Assembly (NCBI GenBank): GCA_037951105.1
Contig: JBAMJV010000860.1
Coordinates: 62,001-126,000 of the forward strand
Reading direction: 5' to 3'
Length of the DNA stretch: 64,000 bases
Origin: Echinarachnius parma
Taxonomy: Eukaryota; Echinodermata; Echinoidea; Clypeasteroida; Echinarachniidae
Of the stretch, positions 2,422 through 35,000 are shown piece by piece. Made by a program: the position numbers and the translations under genes. The notes beneath the pieces were generated by a model, which saw only the letters and a list, made by a program, of their open reading frames with translations, was not told the origin of the DNA and did no database searches. Each line of letters begins with the position of its first letter. Position 1 is the first letter of the stretch.

Positions 2422-5400
2422 GTAACACACTAGTATTATTTTTTAAGCCGGTTATTTATTTATTTTGAGCCAAGTTCTATGGACACATAAATGCATGTTT
2501 TACAAAGTTATAACTTAAAGGTGCACCTGTAAAGTGTCAGATATTGCCCAAAATGACATTTGAGACTTCAATCCTGTACCAAGGTTTTTTCCAGGTTTTT
2601 CCTTTGTAGAAAGGTTTGTTATTTTGCCGTAACTTAAGTGTGAACTTTAAACTGAACATAACAATTTTCACCACATTTTATATACTTTGTTAACCTAGCA
2701 TTAATTTCATGAACTTTCATTTCATTTTTCAATCGCAAACACTTTATCATACAATTATATCATATTCAATTACATTATACATTTAACATGAATTATTTTA
2801 TTTTATTTAAAAAAATTAAACTTGTATTGATTTATTATGACATTCATCCTTCAGAGTTTCTTCAGGTTTTCTTTATTCAGTACAAATTTAATCTTTGGGA
2901 AAATGGGAATAATAAGAGGCATAAATATATGTTTGGAGCGCTGATGATAGCATGCTACCACCGGACACCTGTGGTCATGTGACCATGGGGATGTTGGTCA
3001 TGTGATGTGTGCCATTAATATCAGGTGACCCTTGCGTGAAGGCATGAGTTCATCCTCTGAGCCTTTAATAATATTTGAAACCTCTTCCCTGAATCATCCC
3101 AAAAGCTGGCCTACTAGGGGGAGAAAAAAAAGGGTAAAGCAAGTGCAACAGATATGAATAATTACAGATAAAATGAAAGGATGCAGTAAGCAGGCATAGA
3201 AATCAAATGTTTAGGAAAGAGCTAGAAAAGATCGAAAGAAACTTGAATGTTTATAAAGGAAAATTTAAAATAGAAATGAAGAATTAAAAAGTATACTATT
3301 CAAAGTCTGATGTATACATTAGTTTGACCTTTGTTTTGGTATTTCGGAAACATCTTATGAAGATAATGCATCACTTGAAAGCTTTTGAGTTTTTTTTTTT
3401 TTACTGTATCTTTGATCTGTGTGTCATGTGACATGAGCAAGTCAAGCTAATTTCATGCAAAGTAGCCCCTAAAAAAATAATGCATTTTGATTTTTTCCCC
3501 CTGCTTTGTTGAGAGAATTTAACTGTTATAACCATCTCTGATTTCTGTGACAACGTGACAGGAGCAAGCCAAGATTGCCAAGGTGGGACTGGAGGTCAAA
3601 CTCCTGACGTCGGAGGTGGACGGAGAGACGGAGAAGTGGGAGGACCAGAACAACGAGATTGTCAAACGAGCCAAGAACATGTCCAGTATGGCCTACGCTA
3701 TGTACATGTTCACCAGGGGGGAGGGGTCACTCAAGACTACGCTCGATCTCTTCAAACAAGCAGAGGTAATTGTCATAGTAATTCATAATGATAATAATAA
3801 TATCAGGGCTGGCCTTTAGAGGTACAATCTATATGATGTGCCATTTTGGGAGGATCAGAACAACAAGAACATGTCCAGTATGGCCTACGCTATGTACATG
3901 TTCACCAGGGGGGAGGAGTCACTCAAGACTACACTCGATCTCTTCAAACAAGCAGAGGTAATTGTAATAGTAATTCATAATGATAATAATAATATCAGGG
4001 CTTGCCTTTAGAGGTACAATCTATATGATGTGCCATTTTGGGAGGATCAGAACAACAAGAACATGTCCAGTATGGCCTATGCTATGTACATGTTCACCAG
4101 GGGGGAGGAGTCACTCAAGACTACGCTCGATCTCTTCAAACAAGCAGAGGTAATTGTAATAGTAATTCATAATGATAATAATAATATCAGGGCTTGCCTT
4201 TAGAGGTACAATCTATATGATGTGCCATTTTGGGAGGATCAGAACAACAAGAACATGTCCAGTATGGCCTACGCTATGTACATGTTCACCAGGGGGGAGG
4301 GGTCACTCAAGACTACACTCGATCTCTTCAAACAAGCAGAGGTAATTGTAATCATAAATCATCTTCATCATCTGAAAGAAAGGGCAATAAGTCACTTTTT
4401 GTACAGAGAAGTTGTGGAGCCTGAGTAGAAACAATTTTAATTAGCTCTCTTAAACCTTTTTGAACTAATAAAATCTCAACAATTTTCAGTAAGTATTATC
4501 TAAACATGTGGCATCTCATGATTTAAAAAATGGTATGCATAACTTATTTCACACACTTACAAAAAAAAACATGATTAATGATGATTAGATAATTGTGATG
4601 ATCATTATGTCATGCTTTCCCAATTCCTTTTTTATTTAGTACTTTGCTGAGGAGGGTCACAAGCTTTTCCGGTCGGTCCGAGAGTTCGTCAGTCAGGTGC
4701 CAGACTGCCCCATGAGAAACGAGCTCTTGAATCATTTAGAACAGATACCGTCAGCCTGCCAGCAGCTCAACTTCACCACAAAGTCACAATCAACCGGCAA
4801 ATCAGCTACATTTAACAAGGTAATGATTTATGAAACTACTCCTTTTCCCCTCCCTTTATAATCACAAATCATCAATCTGAATAATCACAAGAGGACTGTA
4901 TTGAAATAATTAAAACTTAATGATTTCTGAAACTTTTCCTATTCCCTATCCCATCCCCCTTTCTCACATCGCCCCTTTCACTTTACCCGTTCACTATACC
5001 CCAACTTCACTTTACCCTCAAGCCAAATCAAACAATAAATCAGGTGCCTTCACTGTATGAAGAATTTAAAAGCAAATATGAAAATAATAATAATAACAAT
5101 CATTATTATTATATACCTCATTTTGAGAATCCTGCAATCTGATTGGCTGAACGAGCGGGCATATTTTTCAATATGCCTGCTCAGCTAACAAACAAAATAA
5201 ATAAAAACAAAACAAACAAAGCTCCGGCTCCGGGTGATCATATTGATTTTTTCACAAAATGTCCATAGAGCTTGTTTGTTCGGGTTTGACGTAGCATTTC
5301 AGCGCGAACAATTCAAAATCCGAGTTTTAAAAAATATAATGGCAGCCTCCGCGCTGTACGCGATGATTGGGATTAGCCCGTACAACGAATGAATTTAAAT

Positions 5401-23000: not shown

Positions 23001-26000
23001 AAAACTGTTTCTTGCTCAATATATAAACTGCACATTTAAAATACACTAAGCAAGGAACTAAGCTAGCAGGGTTTTTTATGAATATGGGGCCAGCCCATTA
23101 CAATGCAGTTCCCCCCTCACCTGTTTGACTGCCTGGACCACATCATGCTTCGCCTTGACCCTCATCCTGGCCAGGTCCTGCTGAGCCTGCTCCAGCTCCT
23201 CCACCAACTCCTCCTGGCTCATCACCTGGGGGAACGTCAGGTCAACAAGGTCACTGACCTCCTCCAAGGGGTCAACAAACTCTAAGGTAGCTCTACTGGG
23301 ATCGATGAACTCTGATGTGTCTCTGTTAGCAGACTCTGATTCGTCCCTGTTGGAGTCAACAGTCTTTGATTTAATCATGTGGGGGTCAACGGTCTGTGAT
23401 TTATCCATGTTGGGGTCAACAGACTTTGATTTATCCATGTTGGGGTCAACAAACTTTGATTTCTCCATGTTGGGGTCAACAGACTTTGATTTGTCCCGGT
23501 TGGGGTCAACAGACTTTGATTTGTCCCTGCTGGGGTCAATGGACTTTGATTTGTTCCTGTTGGGGTCAACAGACTTTGATATACATTTAGGGTCACTGTT
23601 TTTCTTTTTATCATCCTTTCCCGTACATGGAGGAAAGCTCTTGTCTTCTTTCCTTGGTCGAGGTGATGATGATGATGACGGTGGCGATGTCAATCTAGGT
23701 GACGATGGAGATCCTAATGGCGATGATGCAGCAAGTTGTTCCAAGGCATCGAGGTCGTCCAGGAAACTACGAAGCGACGTCTGCTCCCTGATGAGATGAA
23801 CCATCTCGCACATGACCTGGCTTAGACTCACACTCCAGATGTTGCCTCCAGCCTCACTCGAGTCCTTTGCAATAAAATTTTTAAAATGTATTGTTAGAAT
23901 TTTAACAAAATTTCTGCTCACTTTTAATAGTTTACTTTATCAAATTATTAGTGTTCTACTTTATAATCCACACATTACTTATTATCAAATTACTGTAAAT
24001 ATTTATGTAGGCAGAGCAGAGATTTCAAAATATTCAATATTCTGCCGTATAAAATCAGCCCAGTTGACAAATATGGTTTTTGCTATGGGTAGGGGAGTGG
24101 TCTCGTGTCTGATGTATCATGTGGTTACTCCGTGACTTTACAGGGTGTTAACAGCGCCGTAAAATGATTCTTTCTAAATTAACTTTACATGACCCTCACT
24201 AGGAAATGTGACTGAAGTTTTTAAGAAAGTAGTAATACTACTAATAATAGTTAGGCATTTATATTGCACCATCAATCAATAAATTCTATTCCGAGGTGCA
24301 TAATACTATGCGGTATACTTAATTATTACCCTGGTTTTAGCCGAGCTGCCTGCAAGCAGGTGCATCAAGCATTTCAAGGAATAAAATCCTTCCAGGTACC
24401 CAATTACTACACCTGGGTTGAGAGCAGCAAATGTAGATGGTGTCTTGTGAAGGAAACACCTTCTATGGTTGGGATCGAATTGAACCCACAGCCCTCATAT
24501 TGAAAGAAGAAGGCCTAAACCAATAGAGATAATATAATAAAGCAAACTTACTGCAGCTGATGTGAGGGCAGACTGGCGATTCTCCATGAGAGTCTTCTCC
24601 AGCGAAAAGATTTCTCATAAAACGTGTTTACGTAATCAATAGATAAATAAATAAATAACAGAAAATATCTCAAGCAAACTTACCGCAGCTGATGTTAGGG
24701 CAGACTGGTACCTCTCCATGAGAGTTTTCTCCAGCGAAAAGATTTCTCCCTTGATCTGATATCGCACCTTCGAGAGACCGCCAAGGTTTTCTCTGAATAA
24801 AACAAACAGATATGATAAAATGAGATCATCTATCACTATTTACATCGTAAATGCAAAAAGAGAGAGACAACCGACTAGACATTGATAATATACATGAAAA
24901 ATGAGCAAAGGAAATTGGGCTTCGCCAGGAATTGCACCCAAGACCTCCTGATTGCTAGACCGGTGCTCTAACTGTTGAGCCACAAGGCTCTGATGGTCCT
25001 TCCCAGAAACCCTTTTCAATGCATGTGCCAGTCAAGGGTTATATAAACCTGACAAGAATGTATCATCTTTATCACCATTTACATCATCATCACCATCACC
25101 ATCATCATTATTATTTACCTTTCCTCCCTTGTGAAGTTAAGGCCCAGGTCCGCGTACATCCTGTAGGACCAGGTCTCGAGTAAGTCTAGGTCCTGGTGGT
25201 ACCGGCAAAGGGCTCGCTGGAGAAGTTTCAGATCCTCAATTGCTTCCTACATGTGCATATTGAGATATAAAACAGAAGTGAAATTCAAACTAAGAACCAA
25301 TGTGGGTCTCAAATAAGTTGAGATCCTAGTGGTACTGGCAAAGGGCTCGCTGAAGAAGCTTTAGGTCCTCAATTGCTTCATACATACCAGATATAAACAG
25401 GAGTTAGATTAACAAGATCCAATGGAAGGCAGTCAGTGAAAAAATATATAGCGATTTATCCCCTATAATGCCCTATCATAGCACATTAAAATTCTAAGTG
25501 GAATATACTATATTTTACCCATGTAAGAGACTATAAAGTCATGAAAAACACTTAAACTTACCTCTTGGTTATTTGTTGGAAGTGCTGGGAATAGATGGAC
25601 ACTGTCATCCTGCAATTTGAAATAATAATGATAAGGTTAGAAAAAATAATGCATTTCCACTATAGACATTCACTTATATATGGGGCAGTCATATACTGCA
25701 AAACGTAACATTTTTCATACACAACCTCATCATTTATGTGTTTATTCTGTTCTGCCAGACTTAGGGTACATTTGATAAATATAGCGCCTGGGCCTGTTAT
25801 TATCATTAAAATTGTTTGCATCCAATGGCCAAAATGTAAATTGTGCACACACTGTGTCTTTCAAAAAAATTACTACTGAGAAAGTTTTTAAATGAAAGTA
25901 AGTCCATCACATTAATGAATTATACATGTACATGTATGTAATGTGTGAGGATCTCCCTACCTGAGATGACAGCAGCACTTTCAACTCCTCTCTGGCCTTG

Positions 26001-29000
26001 ACATGTTCCTCCCGGCTGACTGCTTCGATTCTCGTCTCACTCCTCTCCAGTGGATGGACATTTGCTGATGTAGCTTCTGCCTGGCTTTCCCTCTCCTCCT
26101 CATTGGCTCCGGAACCTTTCAGGAGGGTCTTCCTATCAGATGCCTGGACATCAGATGTGGTCCTCTCACTTCTTTGCGATGACTCTTCTGAAGAATGTTG
26201 CACTGTAGAACCTTCCTGAAGGCTCGTCCTGTCCGATGCCTGGACTTGTGTGGTCATTTCACTTCTTTGCAAGGACTCTTTTGAAGAATGTTCAACTGCT
26301 GGTGAAAGAGACACGCTCTCTGCCTTCAATGGCTTGACGACTTCCTCACACACCAATAGACGATTTACGACTTCAGGCTGGCTACCAAGGGTGGAATCTT
26401 CTTGAAGGCTCTTCCTATCCGATGCCTGGACATCAGATGTGATCCCTTCTCTTCTCTGCAAGGACTCTTCTGGAGAACGTTCAACTGCAGGAGAAAGGGA
26501 CTCGCTCTCGATGTTCAACGGCTTGATGACTTCTTCACACACCTTGTTAAAATCCACGACTTCTGGCTGGCTACAGAGGGCAGAATCATCTTGAAGGCTC
26601 TTCCTATCTGATGCCTGGACATTGGATGTGGTCCTCTCACTTATTTGTGAAGACTCTTCTGGTGAGCGTCCGACTGCAGGTGAAAGAGACTCGCTCTCAA
26701 TGTTCAATGGCTTGATGAATTCTTCACACACCAAGTGACAATCCACAACTTCTGGCTGGCTACGAAGGTCATCATCAGCAAGACTGTCAAAATTTTCATC
26801 TTGAGATTTCTCTTCATCCCCTTGCATAAGCCCTGAGTTACAGCCTTTGTCTCGGGTGGAGTGAATATCTGGGGTAGCTTTAGAGGTTATGAGGTTTGGA
26901 GACCTTGATTCTTCAGCGTTTGTGGAGGAAGGAATTACTGCTGACACTGCAGTAGACGATGAACAAGCTATCCCAATATGGGGTTCCTCCGATGTGATGT
27001 GATCTGTATCTTGGACCCCATTGGTCTGATCTTCCTTATGTTCCTTCTCCGTGGAGTCATTTGTCTCTTGTATGTTATTAGCTTCTAACATAATTTGATC
27101 TTCTGCTCGCTGCTTCGCGTTCTGGACGTTATTTCCATCCAGCACCGTTTCCTGTTCAGTCTGTAATACAAAATTTGGACTTAGCTGCTTACCACTTGGA
27201 AACGTATCATTCGCTTCCTCAGCAGTTTCTACGGTTCTCTCCAGACCATGCTCTAAACTCTTGCTTCGTAGGTCAGCCATTTCTAGGATTCCACGCGAGT
27301 CGTTGGCACTTAAAGCGCAGACGTGCAACGCACTATCCTTTGCTCCTGGACATCTACAACCTGGTGTCGTCTCCTCGTAGCGCTTATAGCTGTAGAAATC
27401 CGGATCAACACTTCTCATTTTCCTGAGTTTAGGTCTCCTCCTCCCTGGTGGGGCAGTATTTTTGAAACTATCATTATTGATTTCCGAAGTATTCTTGCTC
27501 TTTATTGTATCAAGTTCTGAAGATGTTGCATTCAGCGATTGGTGAATTTCAAGGGGATCGTTACAAAAAGAGTCGGTCTTTTCAGGGCTCGCTAAATCAG
27601 GGAAGGTGTGCGCTCTTTTACATTTGTGCGCTTTATTAGTTTTAAGGACCTTGGCAGATTCATTTACATTATCATCAAATGCGGAATCCTGAAGGGAAGA
27701 CACGGATGGAAGGCGCTGATGCGGTTCTGGATTGGTTACAAACACTTTTACTGGATGAGCACCCTTTTCTGCATCGCCTGAAGATATTGCATGCCCAAAG
27801 TTGTCATCGTTGTGCGATTGGGATTCAAAGAGTTCGATCTCTTCTTCGTTAACGTCAAAACTGGTCTGGGTGAGTTGTGCGGCCTGTGAGGTGATTTTGG
27901 AACAGTTGTCGGCAGGATTTGGTGCCTGGTGAGGGGAAGCCAATTCCGAAGATCCGATTCCCTCGTCCGAGAACCCGCTACTGTCCGACTGAGTGCTCCC
28001 TCTACGACCTACAGGTAAAGAAACGTTTTAGGAAAATGTTTTACGGGTTGATGACAAATTTCACCCAGTTCATATGGAACGCTTAATGTTTCAAATTCAA
28101 CACGCAGAACATACATTAGATGCATCAAAATACTAGTAGCTGCTTTAATAAACTCTATCAGAAATTATTTCTAACTACAGTCAAACCTGTCTTAATGGCC
28201 ACATGTCTATAGCAGCCAACCCGTCTACAGTGGCCACCAAAAGTGCTCTCGTAAAGAAAAAAACAATGTTATGGACCTGAACCTGTATAAGAGGCCACCT
28301 GTCTACAGTGGCCAATTCCCTTATGTGGTCACTACACACAGGTTTATACTCATACTCACCTCTGTGATGGTTCCTACCAGTAGAATGTGGTCACTACAGG
28401 TTTATACTCATACTCACCTCTGTGATGGTTTCTACCAGTAGAATGTGGTCACTACACACAGGTTTATACTCATACTCACCTCTGTGATGGTTTCTATCAG
28501 TAGAATGTGGTCACTACACACAGGTTTATACTCATACTCACCTCTGTGATGGTTTCTACCAGTAGATTGTGGTCACTACACACAGGTTTATACTCATACT
28601 CACCTCTGTGATGGTTTCTATCAGTAGAATGTGGTCACTACACACAGGTTTATACTCATACTCACCTCTGTGATGGTTTCTATCAGTAGAATGTGGTCAC
28701 TACACACAGGTTTATACTCATACTCACCTCTGTGATGGTTTCTACCAGTAGAATGTGGTCACTACACACAGGTTTATACTCATACTCACCTCTGTGATGG
28801 TTTCTACCAGTAGAATGTGGTCACTACACACAGGTTTATACTCATACTCACCTCTGTGATGGTTTCTACCAGTAGAATGTGGTCACTACACACAGGTTTA
28901 TACTCATACTCACCTCTGTGATGGTTTCTACCAGTAGAATGTGTTCACTACACACAGGTTTATACTCATACTCACCTCTGTGATGGTTTCTATCAGTAGA

Positions 29001-32000
29001 ATGTGGTCACTACACACAGGTTTATACTCATACTCACCTCTGTGATGGTTTCTACCAGTAGATTGTGGTCACTACACACAGGTTTATACTCATACCTACC
29101 TATGTGATGGTTTCTACCAGTAGAATGTGGTCACTACACACAGGTTTATACTCATACTCACCTCTGTGATGGTTCCTACCAGTAGATTGTGGTCACTACA
29201 CACAGGTTTATACTCATACTCACCTCTGTGATGGTTTCTACCAGTAGAATGTGGTCACTACAGGTTTATACTCATACTCACCTCTGTGATGGTTTCTACC
29301 AGTAGAATGTGGTCACTACACACAGGTTTATACTCATACTCACCTCTGTGATGGTTTCTACCAGTATAATGTGGTCACTACACACAGGTTTATACTCATA
29401 CTCACCTCTGTGATGGTTTCAACCAGTAGAACGTGGTCACTACACACAGGTTTATACTCATACTCACCTCTGTGATGGTTTGTACCAGTAGAATGTGGTC
29501 ACTACAGGTTTATACTCATACTCACCTCTGTGATGGTTTCTACCGGTAGAATGTGGTCACTACACACAGGTTTATACTCATACTCACCTCTGTGATGGTT
29601 TCAACCAGTAGAATGTGGTCACTACACACAGGTTTATACTCATACTCACCTCTGTGATGGTTTCTACCAGTAGATTGTGGTCACTACAGGTTTATACTCA
29701 TACTCACCTCTGTGATGGTTCCTACCAGTAGAATGTGGTCACTACAGGTTTATACTCATACTCACCTCTGTGATGGTTCCTACCAGTAGAATGTGGTCAC
29801 TACAGGTTTATACTCATACTCACCTCTGTGATGGTTCCTACCAGTAGAATGTGGTCACTACACACAGGTTTATACTCATACTCACCTCTGTGATGGTTTC
29901 AACCAGTAGAATGTGGTCACTACACACAGGTTTATACTCATACTCACCTCTGTGATGGTTTCAACCAGTAGAATGTGGTCACTACACACAGGTTTATACT
30001 CATACTCACCTCTGTGATGGTTTCAACCAGTAGAATGTGGTCACTACACACAGGTTTATACTCATACTCACCTCTGTGATGGTTTCTACCAGTAGAATGT
30101 GGTACCTACACACAGGTTTATACTCATACTCACCTCTGTGATGGTTTCTACCAGTAGAGTGTGGTCACTACAGGTTTATACTCATACTCACCTCTGTGAT
30201 GGTTTCTACCAGTAGAATGTGGTGCAGCATTAGCATCTTCCAATCGCTCCTCGCTCGATAGCTTCAAAATAAAAATACAAAAGAAATTTCATTATCAATC
30301 TTGAAATGCAAGAGAAAGGGAACAGGATAGAAATACAGATGTACAAACAAACTGAAAATATAATGCATATTTATTTTTAGTTTGTATTATTTCTTAGATA
30401 GTAAACTCGCTTGTCTATTCATATGAGTATGTATTGATTATTACAATTGTAAATTTTTAATCTTGACTTGGACCTCTTTGAAACAAGGGCAATCCATCCC
30501 ATGAGGGGAGAATGAATAAATAAATAAAATTAATATTTGCTTAGTTCAACCTCGATAAATTCCAAATAGATTTCAAATTTGTACACAATGGAAACATTAC
30601 TGAGTGCATATTAAAATTCCATCCATCCAGTTCATCAGACAACGATCAGCTTGCTATGAAGTGTGAATTATATTTTCAATTCATTCCACTATCTACTGCC
30701 AGAGCATTTAGGAAGACGACAACAATGGATTAATTATGTGATTATTTAGATTATGTATGAGCATACCTCATCAAATAATAATAGCAAAATCCCCTATTGA
30801 TCAACACTAAATATAGAGGAAGATGAGCTTTGTAGGATTATGAATGTCTCTACAAATCGTTCCCCCATCTACTGTGTGCATTTAGGAAGAATAATTTAAG
30901 ATTATATATTGAGCATACCTCTTCAAATTCAAAGGAGTCTTCCTTTGCATCCAGCAGTCTGATCCCTCCGGAGCACAAGACGTCCACATGAAGCGGTCTG
31001 GGGCGGCTTGGAGATCCCTTCTCTTTGGCGGTACCACCATCTTGGAGTCTCTCATGACCTACTTCATCATTCCAGAGTTTTTCGTGAGCTAGTCCATTCT
31101 TTGAAGACCTACTCGAGGTTAAGTCCGCACTATCAAGAATCCCTTCATGTTTCGGCTCGCTTATGCTTGCGTCTTCGAAGTCGCAAATCCTCGATTGTCT
31201 TTCCACCGATAATTTCCTTCTTCTGCTCTTCTCGTTTCCTGGAGCCGTTTCTGACGGAGCACCTTTGTTCGTGGGTGAAGACGAGGATCTTTGTTCTTGT
31301 TCTGATGGCAAGCATAGAGGTTTTACAGAAGCACAATCATCCCTCGCGGCTGCGTCTCTGTTGTCATCTTCTGCTGCAAGAAGAGGTTGACCAAGAGGAA
31401 GTGTGAAGGGTCTGAATGTAGTCCTAGGAGCACTATCGAATGACTGCTCACCATCACTTCCTGTCAGCTGCGACGACTCAAACTCAGAACTGGTAGAAGC
31501 ATCCCACCTCCTATTCAACTCGGTCTGTCCCTGCCTACTTTGACCTTTGACCTGACCTGTGACCCTACTGGCCTGATCCTCCGAGCTCTTGCTGCTATGA
31601 TTCGTGACCACAGCTTCGGGGAAGACTACTGTTCGGGAAGCGGACGTCTTGTTATTGTTCTTCTCTGTGACCGCTCTCTTACCAGGTCCCTCCAGATCTT
31701 TCACACCCGTCTCTGTTCCAAAGTTTGCAGGTCGGTCACCCTTGACCTGTATCTCAGCACTATCCAGTTGACCTTTGACCTCGGTTGGCTGGGGTGATGA
31801 TGGGGTCACTGACCTGCTACTGAGGGGGGACAGCCCCATCTGAGACGACCTGCGCATGGCGGGACCGAGACTTCGCAGTCCCCCAATCAAACTGAACCCT
31901 GTTGAAGAAATGAGAAAGACAACTCATAGATTAAAATGAGACAGTGAAGTTAAGAAAAAAACTAAGACTTTTTTAAAAAACCTGCTTAATACAATGAGAG

Positions 32001-35000
32001 TGATTTATAAGGACATATTATATGAGCCTAACACAACCCTTGCATATTCTTCAGGAAGGGTCAAACTACCAATGAGCATGTTAAAAAATTCAATTCAATT
32101 TTTAAAGAGGTTTATTTTTAAAATCTAATCCATTGAAAGGAGAATTTGAAGTAATTTTACAGATTTTAATCAGGAGGGGTTGACATTACAGTTTACATTA
32201 ATATGTAATTCTCTGCTCTGGCCTCTGCTATTTTCAGCCGCTGTCTGGAAATGACCATGTAACTGGACAGAATGTGTTTTTCAGAAGAGGTCAAGGAGAG
32301 AATAATTTTTGTATGAGAGGAAAAAGAGATCGATCTGGTAGCTGAGAGAAAGAGAGGGAAAAGGGAGACAAAAGAGAGATGGGGAAAAGAGGGGATAGTA
32401 ATGAAAAGGAAGAAGAGGATCAGAAAGATAAGAAGAATTAAGGCAAGAAAATCAGCATTGGAAGATAGAAATGAAGACTGACCACATCCTCTCTCCAGCT
32501 CATCAATCTGGTTGAGGAAGGCATAAACCGAGATGCCCCGAGCTTCAGATGGTTGCTGTAGAAACCGGCTTGGGATGCGGTCCATGGTGTCCTCCTGAAT
32601 AGATCTTCCGAACCCAAGGTTGAGCAAGATCTCTTCCGGGTCACGGCGAGCAGTGAGGAGGTCATCAATGCTGTAGGGGGAAAAAAGAAAAGAATATATT
32701 TCTTTAAATGTTGCTTGTAAGTATTTCTTTAGTCCAGTTAGAAGCCTGAAAACTCTTTCACTTTGAGATTCTTCCTGAAGAGAACCTCCAAACTCATGCA
32801 AGGTTGAGCAAGATTTCTTCCGGATCTCTGCGGGCAATGAGTAGGTCATCAATGCTGTAGGGAAAAAAAGAAAAGAATATATTTCTTTAAATGTTGCTTG
32901 TACATTGTAAGTACATGTATTTCTTTAGTCCAGTTAGAAGCCTGAAAACTCTTTCACTTTGAGATTCTTCCTGAAGAGAACCTCCAAACTCATGCAAGGT
33001 TGAGCAAGATTTCTTCCGGATCTCTGCGGGCAATGAGTAGGTCATCAATGCTGTAGGGAAAAAAAGAAAAGAATATATTTCTTTAAATGTTGCTTGTACA
33101 TTGTAAGTACATGTATTTCTTTAGTCCAGTTAGAAGCCTGAAAACTCTTTCACTCTGAGATTCTTCCTGAAGAGAACCCCCAGACCCAAGGTTGAGCTAG
33201 ATTTCTTCTGGATCTCGGCAGGCAGTGAGTAGGTCATCAATGCTGTAGCAAAATAACAACAGAGAACAAAATAAATTCTTAGTCCAACAAGAAGCATATT
33301 TTAACCTGTTCTCTTTAACCCCTTGACTACGGGAACCGAGCGGTATGTGTACAAAGTCTATGGAGATTTCAGAATCTCAAAGGGAACGGGTTAAGATTCT
33401 TGAATCTCCCGCCAGGTTCCCATAGGCAAGGGGGTTACAAATTCTGCTTTTCCCCAGCCATTAGGGTATGATGTTCTCTGGAGAAGAGCCTCCGAAGCTG
33501 TAGTTGATCAAGATGAGCTGCAATGATCAGGTCATCAATGCTGTAGGAAAATCAACATCAAAATGTACAAAATGTAATTCTTTAGTTCGGCTAAAAGTCT
33601 GTTAAAATGCTGCCTTCTGATTTTGATGTTCTCTTTTATAAGAGAAGATCCCTCCGAAGCTCATGTTAATCAAGATAAGTTTGGGGTCTTGAATAGCAAT
33701 GATCTGGGCCATGTTTCATCAATATTTTCCATCACTTTTAAATGTCCAATCACTGTAACTACCATGAAAAACAACAGTTATTCTCCAAGCAACTGCTTTT
33801 TGGCATATTGGCAGAGTAATAAATAATTTGATATACAGTATATATACAACATTTGGAAAAGTTTCAATGCTGCATTGGAAAGGGAAAATTAAATAATAAT
33901 AACATAATAGTAACAAATTACTCTTGAAAAAACTTTGGTGTATTAGAATTAACCTATTCAAAACTATTTGATTTCGGTAAAACATGCATTCTCCATAGAC
34001 CCGACCAGCACAGATATTTTCAAGACTTATTCCGAAGAGGGTAAAAACAATTGTTCACAAAAGGTAATAGAAGGAAGAGAATTATAATACAAATACTGAA
34101 GTTAATTTTTGAAAATGATCTCACTTTGACTGTTTTGAATCTGCATAATCAATGTATAAGTGTCTAACTACATGTATATGAAACAATAACTCTTGTTGCT
34201 ACATGCTTTCTCCGCTATCTGATGAAGTGTCAGGGGGGTGTTTCACAAAGTTGAACTTAACTCTAAGTTGGACTTACAAATTATGGAAAGCCGTTAGTTT
34301 CTTTGAAAACGAATTCTAAAAGTCTTTTTAAAACTAAAAGGTATTAAATGTGGTTTCAATTCATTAATATTTTCTATTATCAAGGAGATTTCATGTTCTT
34401 GATGTAATATTTATGAAAAGTCTAAAATACTTGCATTTTGCTTTTGAATATATTTTATTTCAAGGTTACAAATGGCTTTCCATAATAGTTGAGTCCAACT
34501 TAGAGTTAAGTTCAACTTAATAGGATCTTTGTGAAACACCCCCCTGGAGTTCTTAATCCCGCTATCACTTGACAGTTGGTAAACAGGAAACGTGCTACGA
34601 GGATGCAGAATACAAATCAAGGCCTACCATTGAGTCACATACATGCTAGCCTTCCATCAAGCCTCTCAGGCAGAAAAACAAGGAAGACAAAAGCTGAGCA
34701 ATAAAAAAAGTCCTACCACAATTCTTCCCTCCTCATATTTTTACTAAACAAAACAGCTTAAATCATATTATAATTCAGTTTCCACACTTGGCAGACCGCT
34801 TTCGAAAAAAAAATGTTATCGGTGACTACGTGTAGGCTACAATAGGTAATTACTTTCACGTAAACCTAAATTTGTAAAACATGATTTAAATGTATGTTTC
34901 AAACCCAAAATATGATTAAAATGTGATCATGAGAAACACACCAACCCTGGCAAATCCAGCCTTTTCTTACCTAGACAGTCTGCGCAGGGCACCATCAACA

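What the first reader, a model, noticed from the sequence alone, without database searches (positions are those of the whole stretch)
28325..30222. Minisatellite of 31 units, each carrying an exon end and 5' splice site
Read on the minus strand (the direction of the ITPRID gene), every ~62-bp unit contains the last ~28 bases of exon 30192-30261, then AGAG|gtgagt and the start of the intron. The gene therefore presents about 31 near-identical donors in a row after one acceptor. Use of a distal donor would retain whole units and, because 62 and 58 are not multiples of three, would usually shift the frame. Alternatively the copies may act as U1 decoys. I know of few cases where a splice donor itself is the core of a large array.
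Basis: partly seen in the sequence, partly recalled or inferred. Interest (0 to 1): 0.85.

Follow-up and report, generated by a model that had tools for sequence, protein, structure and literature searches.

The report
Splice-junction minisatellite with 31 donors
One exon end of an animal gene, together with its splicing signal, is copied 31 times in a row into the next intron; it is a large example of a known and probably harmless kind of repeat (a "mirage"), and other genes of the same genome carry such repeats too.

Summary
On the minus strand, 28323-30223 holds 31 copies of a 58/62-bp unit, each with the last 32 bases of exon 30192-30261 plus the start of its intron; 30 of 31 donors are identical. 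The gene is ITPRID/KRAP-like; the genome is probably an echinoderm's (inference).

The kind is known: repeats spanning exon-intron boundaries are described in amphioxus as "mirages" (PMC3087553, PMC3902484, passages).

All 30 distal donors would retain the same in-frame TAG (30150-30148), whatever the spacing. The same gene has an acceptor-side mirage and a neighbouring alpha-catulin-like gene two apparent donor-side ones. Of 22 other loci examined from genome-wide donor lists, 13 start at an apparent exon end; five are confirmed by homology (DYNC2LI1, MSH6, CYB5R, an esterase, an LDL-receptor-repeat gene). Over 15 arrays, 0 of 111 distal donors gives an open, in-frame message.

Best reading: a nearly neutral junction duplication, spliced from the exon-nearest donor. 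No RNA data were available, so the splicing choice is inferred. Donor-triplet match counts show no consistent excess over a reversed motif: slightly above in one of four searches, below in three.

The parts
30192..30261 (-). Exon of 70 nt (phase 0 in, phase 1 out) whose last 32 bases are the exon part of the repeat unit
   Evidence: reading LSSEERLEDANAAPHSTGRNHHRG joins in frame to the next exon
28323..30223 (-). Minisatellite of 31 units of 58 or 62 bp, exon end + donor + intron start
30190..30191 (-). First (exon-nearest) donor GT, inferred to be the one used
   Evidence: use is inference
28358..30133 (-). Thirty distal donors, the first with its G at 30133 and the last with its G at 28359
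30148..30150 (-). In-frame TAG retained by use of any distal donor
30217..30223 (-). ACCACAT in the exon, one of two 7-bp direct repeats at the ends of the array
28323..28329 (-). ACCACAT at the intron end of the array, running into unrelated intron
30919..31923 (-). Open frame holding the upstream exon, which ends at 30919 (...DSFEFEE); its 5' end was not determined
25907..28008 (-). Open frame of the next exon from 28008 (GRRGSTQSDSSGFSDEG...); its 3' end was not determined. The intron between is 2183 bp, 351 bp without the 30 extra units
32670..33248 (-). Acceptor-side mirage of the same gene: four acceptors (exon first bases 33242, 33050, 32854, 32670), unit about 196 bp; only the 3'-most copy is open and matches KRAP_IP3R_bind
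3672..4352 (+). Donor-side mirage of an alpha-catulin-like gene, 192 bp x 3.5, donor GTs starting at 3766, 3958, 4150, 4342

Best explanation
This is a 'mirage': a tandem duplication that began across an exon-intron junction of an ITPRID/KRAP-like gene and expanded into the intron. Shown: the unit, its 31 copies, the 7-bp ACCACAT at both ends, and the stop codon that any distal donor would retain. Inferred: slippage or microhomology-mediated duplication between the two ACCACAT copies made the first tandem copy and later exchange enlarged it, taking the intron from about 0.35 to 2.2 kb. Inferred: splicing joins the first donor (30191) to 28008 because the sites are paired across the short 70-nt exon, so the exon-nearest of several equal sites wins. 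The other 30 donors are then intronic bystanders; rare messages using them carry a stop and are degraded or truncated. Duplications across a junction are tolerated because the spliced message is unchanged; no mechanism that targets junctions is needed.
For: Array and donors. Direct repeats at both ends. Gene: KRAP_IP3R_bind 1.7e-13 on an upstream exon of the same strand. Distal use is destructive: 30 of 30 here; over 15 arrays 104 of 111 distal donors retain a stop, 7 of 111 only shift frame, 0 of 111 are open and in frame. Same architecture in unrelated genes: of 22 loci with fetched flanks, 13 have an open reading frame ending at the first donor, 2 are possible, 7 show none, judged by eye; five of the 13 are supported by Pfam above cut-off or PDB. 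Mirror case: in the acceptor-side array of this gene the three upstream copies have stops and only the exon-nearest is open. Exon against copies, 17 arrays pooled: 9 synonymous and 2 non-synonymous fixed differences, against 23 and 30 among the copies, Fisher p = 0.043, as expected if the first copy is the coding one. Amphioxus mirages are reported not to disturb splicing (PMC3087553, PMC3902484; passages).
Against: No transcript data: use of the first donor is inferred. Donor-triplet match counts show no consistent excess over the reversed motif: 593 against 557, 66 against 73, 116 against 458, 51 against 68. The synonymous-site test is pooled and only just significant. Apart from unit 19, substitutions among units avoid 41 columns around the donor (P 5e-5 leaving out unit 19, 0.008 for 24 columns with it; post hoc), which plain neutrality does not predict. 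SRSF1 can favour the intron-proximal of two donors (PMC5585400, passages), the opposite of the choice inferred here.
Confidence: 0.75

Rival explanations
1. Poison-donor rheostat: distal donors are used often, all give the same premature stop, and array length sets how much productive message is made, differing between alleles.
For: All 30 distal donors give the same stop. Donors are strong and nearly identical. Amphioxus mirages vary in length (PMC3087553, passage).
Against: No conservation or expression could be tested. The destructive outcome is shared by 15 arrays, mostly in unrelated genes, and any partly retained intron tends to give it. Amphioxus mirages are reported to splice normally.
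Confidence: 0.1
2. U1 platform: the distal donors bind U1 without splicing, acting as decoys or protecting the enlarged intron from premature polyadenylation; the near-invariant columns around the donor reflect that use.
For: 41 columns around the donor have no substitution in 30 of 31 units. The predicted duplex of the donor with the U1 5' end (sequence recalled) is -13.4 kcal/mol.
Against: The stretch was noticed post hoc; recent re-amplification could cause it. Unit 19 with changed letters scores nearly the same (-13.1 kcal/mol). Nothing shows U1 binding.
Confidence: 0.05
3. The array is overstated or created by assembly.
For: No reads were available. Contigs C1023 and C5052 are identical over 1201 bases, so the assembly may hold redundant copies.
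Against: Units differ by interspersed variants and two lengths, and similar arrays occur on other contigs.
Confidence: 0.05

Closest known systems
Amphioxus 'mirages' (Adh3, globins BflGb6 and BflGb9, troponin C, PGBD5): PMC3087553 and PMC3902484, passages read; the original Adh paper (10.1093/nar/gkf386) is not held
   Same: Tandem repeat across an exon-intron boundary, donor or acceptor side, with AG/GT signals in many copies; normal mRNA reported
   Different: Probably another phylum; 31 units here against 6 and 3 in the two BflGb6 haplotypes and 2-7 in PGBD5; Adh3 copy numbers were not seen
Human 6-16 (G1P3/IFI6) minisatellite, Nucleic Acids Res 1995 23:1854, seen only as a title in two reference lists; that it is this gene is recalled
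   Different: Details not read; there several donors are used, by the title; here use of distal donors would truncate the protein
Internal tandem repeats at exon-intron boundaries of human duplicated genes (PMC2812944, passages)
   Same: Repeats at exon-intron boundaries that can change splicing; 27 intron modifications reported
   Different: Short arrays (on average 30-bp units, 4 copies) in recent human duplicates

Membership tests
Mirage (boundary-spanning minisatellite) | Tandem repeat whose unit holds exon and intron sequence of one junction | tested here: met
   32 exon bases plus 26 or 30 intron bases per unit
Mirage (boundary-spanning minisatellite) | Copies carry splice signals | tested here: met
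   31 of 31 units have AG|GT; 30 of 31 the identical nine bases GTGAGTATG
Mirage (boundary-spanning minisatellite) | Normal mRNA is still made from the outermost junction | not testable with these tools
   No transcript data; frame and coding results are compatible
Mirage (boundary-spanning minisatellite) | Length varies between alleles | not tested
   The unit search found one locus in the assembly; no other individuals available
Minisatellite giving alternative donors in stable messages (6-16 type) | Use of later units leaves a functional message | tested here: not met
   30 of 30 distal donors retain an in-frame TAG

The most novel reading that the evidence does not exclude
Junction-spanning minisatellites are a genome-wide feature of this (probably echinoderm) lineage, on donor and acceptor sides and in conserved genes, because exon definition lets the exon-nearest of any number of identical splice sites win. 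They form a standing source of spare donors and acceptors for unproductive splicing, new exons and new introns, and the 31-donor ITPRID array is an extreme natural test of that rule.
Probability: 0.4. Interest if true: 0.65.

Novelty: new member of a known kind. Interest (0 to 1): 0.5.

Why it matters
Which of several equal donors the splicing machinery picks is an open question, and constructs usually hold only a few competing sites (my recollection of the field). Here evolution has built tests with 3 to 31 near-identical donors, and an acceptor-side case, in conserved genes such as DYNC2LI1, MSH6 and CYB5R. RNA-seq of the species would settle which site wins. It extends mirages beyond amphioxus as far as my searches show, and gives raw material for the published idea that junction duplications create introns (PMC3087553, passage).

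Tried and rejected
RNA pairing between units: a 297-nt stretch folds better than dinucleotide shuffles (z -3.9, 0 of 200), but 26 of 300 tiled shuffled units fold as well or better than the tiled unit, so such pairing is not unusual for a repeat. Rfam: no family at gathering threshold in 27900-31000.

Cryptic acceptors inside the unit: the best AG has 10 pyrimidines of 17 upstream, against 13 and 11 at the two true acceptors flanking the intron (crude count); use as tiny exons is not excluded.

Selection on the donor itself: 3 of 9 donor columns vary, each only in unit 19, so donor identity alone is not evidence of selection. The other arrays were found by exact donor matches, so testing donor conservation on them would be circular.

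Enrichment: donor-triplet counts are not consistently above the reversed motif (above, below), and counts are inflated by satellites; I do not claim that donor arrays are over-represented. Of six reversed-motif arrays fetched, one (C132) is itself a junction array through a real donor, on an exon matching UNC80 (3.2e-7); in the other five I saw no strong donor in the unit printed and did not translate their flanks.

Relatives: I did not search the prokaryote, virus, phage, plasmid or metagenome collections, which by their descriptions would not be expected to hold this gene, and made no structure prediction. The own-genome search for the KRAP domain did not complete.

Literature: searches that could show an echinoderm case (0 papers; 5 papers, none on echinoderms by title; 1 paper, on lancelet PGBD5) found none. 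The library holds only openly licensed papers.
Full report
WHAT IS THERE. Tandem Repeats Finder gives one array at 28323-30223, period 62, 31.1 copies, 95% matches. On the minus strand, exon 30261-30192 ends ...ACCACATTCTACTGGTAGAAACCATCACAGAG, followed by GTGAGTATGAGTATAAACCTGTAGTG and then ACCACA again. A script found 31 donors with 7 spacings of 58 and 23 of 62 bp; the difference is one GTGT. Thirty of 31 donors read GAG|GTGAGTATG; unit 19 reads TAG|GTAGGTATG. A genome search with 88 bases from the exon side of the array gave 31 matches, all at this locus (only best candidates are scored).

THE GENE. The exon joins in frame to the exon ending at 30919 (...DSFEFEE) and to that starting at 28008 (GRRGSTQSDSSGFSDEG...). 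An exon upstream on the same strand (from 32670) matches Pfam KRAP_IP3R_bind at 1.7e-13, so the name ITPRID is supported; that these exons form one gene is inferred from strand, order and frame. A neighbouring gene on the plus strand matches Vinculin (7e-11) and alpha-catenins in PDB (best 1e-8); the name alpha-catulin is recalled.

THE ORGANISM. G000 has 1,200,326,526 bases in 14,790 contigs. Its COX1 (contig C14600) read with table 9 has TGA at Trp, AGA at three serines and AAA at an asparagine of FPRMNNM. This fits the echinoderm mitochondrial code; that the asparagine is conserved is recalled. Echinoderm is an inference.

HOW IT AROSE. ACCACAT stands at both ends of the array, in the exon (30223-30217) and in the intron (28329-28323). 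Without the 30 extra units (1832 bp) the intron would be 351 bp; it is 2183 bp. Duplication between the two ACCACAT copies is the simplest origin; inference.

WHAT DISTAL DONORS WOULD DO. If the first donor is skipped, the reading meets TAG at 30150-30148 whatever later donor is used: 30 of 30. The frame arithmetic of the finding does not matter.

OTHER JUNCTION ARRAYS CLOSE BY. In the same gene, 32721-33248 repeats an acceptor with the start of its exon. Of four acceptors, the three upstream copies meet stops and only the last continues into the KRAP reading. On the plus strand, 3672-4352 repeats the end of an alpha-catulin-like exon with its donor. At L010:6162-7088 (contig C859:58162-59088) another exon, Vinculin-like below cut-off (6.9e-4, 18.5 bits, cut-off 38.1), is repeated with an apparent donor CGA|GTAAGA, 264 bp x 3.4. 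In 233,359 bases (window, most of its contig, seven other stretches) there were 45 arrays of period 25 or more; four are these, all on the window's contig, so this is no unbiased rate. A fifth (L013:428-803) holds a donor-like motif and was not examined.

OTHER JUNCTION ARRAYS IN THE GENOME. I searched the genome for three exact donors at close spacing (the lists of 29 and 39 are cut short). The list is complete: 66 matches in 13 arrays, 26 of the 66 from the window's array. C1023 and C5052 are identical over 1201 bases, leaving 12 loci: 6 start at an apparent exon end (C859, C218, C1023, C2171, C4833, C8428), 2 are possible (C3535, C9633), 2 show none (C647, C863), 2 simple-looking repeats were not examined (C2533, C6097). 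From I fetched flanks of 22 loci (L027-L048), choosing by eye and leaving out simple repeats, satellites and repeats of a unit already taken: 13 have an open reading frame ending at the first donor, 2 are possible, 7 show none (C647, C863, C2129, C2198, C3031, C5256, C6018) (judged by eye). Five of the 13 have firm homology: an esterase (COesterase 8.9e-13; PDB 2.2e-9), an LDL-receptor-repeat gene (2.9e-11), MSH6 (MutS_V 1.2e-9; PDB 5.7e-11), CYB5R (FAD_binding_6 1.4e-5; PDB 6.3e-9) and DYNC2LI1 (no Pfam match; PDB 2.5e-19 with the preceding exon joined). Eight lack it: hits below cut-off for C378 (CUB 0.02), C2769 (ribosomal L9 0.009), C8428 (0.068), C2171 (0.19) and C4818 (0.0058); no Pfam hit for C4833, C8328, C4894; no PDB match for C8328, C8428, C4833. 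A talin unit on C7237 was recognised in the listing and matched talin-1 (2.1e-8); its flanks were not fetched.

RESULTS AGAINST ENRICHMENT. Match counts against the reversed motif: 593 to 557, 66 to 73, 116 to 458, 51 to 68. They count matches, not arrays, and a few satellites dominate. One of six reversed-motif arrays fetched (C132) is itself a junction array, on an exon matching UNC80. I read this as duplications falling anywhere, those across a junction being tolerated, not as targeting of junctions.

FRAME AND CODING TESTS. Over 15 arrays (the 13 plus two of the window) there are 111 distal donors, a few with changed donor letters: 104 retain a stop inside the array, 7 only shift the frame, 0 are open and in frame. 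C2171 continues beyond the fetched stretch, so its count is partial. Any partly retained intron tends to break the frame, so this shows the cost of distal use, not selection. Over 17 arrays (adding L010 and C132) differences fixed between true exon and copies are 9 synonymous and 2 non-synonymous, against 23 and 30 among copies (Fisher p = 0.043); in C378, C4833 and C4818 only 4-8 exon bases could be compared. The direction fits a constrained first copy; the test is pooled and weak.

AN UNEXPLAINED PATTERN. Substitutions among the units crowd into the first 19 columns; leaving out unit 19, 41 columns around the donor have none (circular scan P 5e-5; with unit 19, 24 columns and P 0.008). This was noticed after the fact, treats columns as independent and leaves the GTGT indel out. 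Recent re-amplification, conversion or constraint on the donor could each do it.

MECHANISM. Best-supported: a nearly neutral mirage with the exon-nearest donor used, by pairing of sites across the 70-nt exon; the acceptor-side array of the same gene fits the same rule. The splicing choice itself is not shown. In a human gene with two competing donors the intron-proximal one is preferred, helped by SRSF1 (PMC5585400, passages), so the choice here is a real question.

WHAT IS KNOWN. PMC3087553 (passages) describes tandem repeats across exon-intron boundaries in amphioxus globin genes, names them mirages after the Adh3 work, reports normal splicing and length instability, and proposes them as a source of introns. 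PMC3902484 (passages) reports the like in PGBD5 and cites Adh and troponin C. PMC2812944 (passages) reports 27 intron modifications by repeats at human exon-intron boundaries. The 1995 paper on a minisatellite with multiple splice donors was seen as a title only. The kind is known; this is a large member in another lineage. Searches found no echinoderm report.

Noticed in passing
32670-33248 (-): Acceptor-side mirage in the same ITPRID-like gene: four acceptors before one exon, only the last copy open.
   Followed up: yes
3672-4352 (+) and L010:6162-7088 (contig C859:58162-59088): Two exons of an alpha-catulin-like gene each repeated with an apparent donor (192 bp x 3.5 and 264 bp x 3.4).
   Followed up: partly
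L038 (contig C2575:92900-93700): A junction array in an MSH6-like mismatch-repair gene, whose product may itself affect repeat stability.
   Followed up: partly
23330-23580 (-): 30-bp x 8.4 repeat inside an open frame (..KSKSVDPNRD..), in frame, downstream of the ITPRID-like exons.
   Followed up: no
26112-26768 (-): Diverged repeat of about 189 bp (a multiple of three) inside the 706-residue open frame, unlike the junction arrays.
   Followed up: no
contigs C186, C879, C1765: A 50-bp satellite AGGTGAGTTGACATGTCCG... with a donor-like core in long arrays; flanks not examined.
   Followed up: no
L034 (contig C3535:247000-248050): Array whose first unit looks by eye like an oxysterol-binding-protein exon (recall) with a one-base frame slip at a GGGG run; error or broken gene not decided.
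   Followed up: no
window 28323-30223, unit columns 20-60: Substitution-free stretch around the donor in 30 of 31 units, while the first 19 columns vary.
   Followed up: partly
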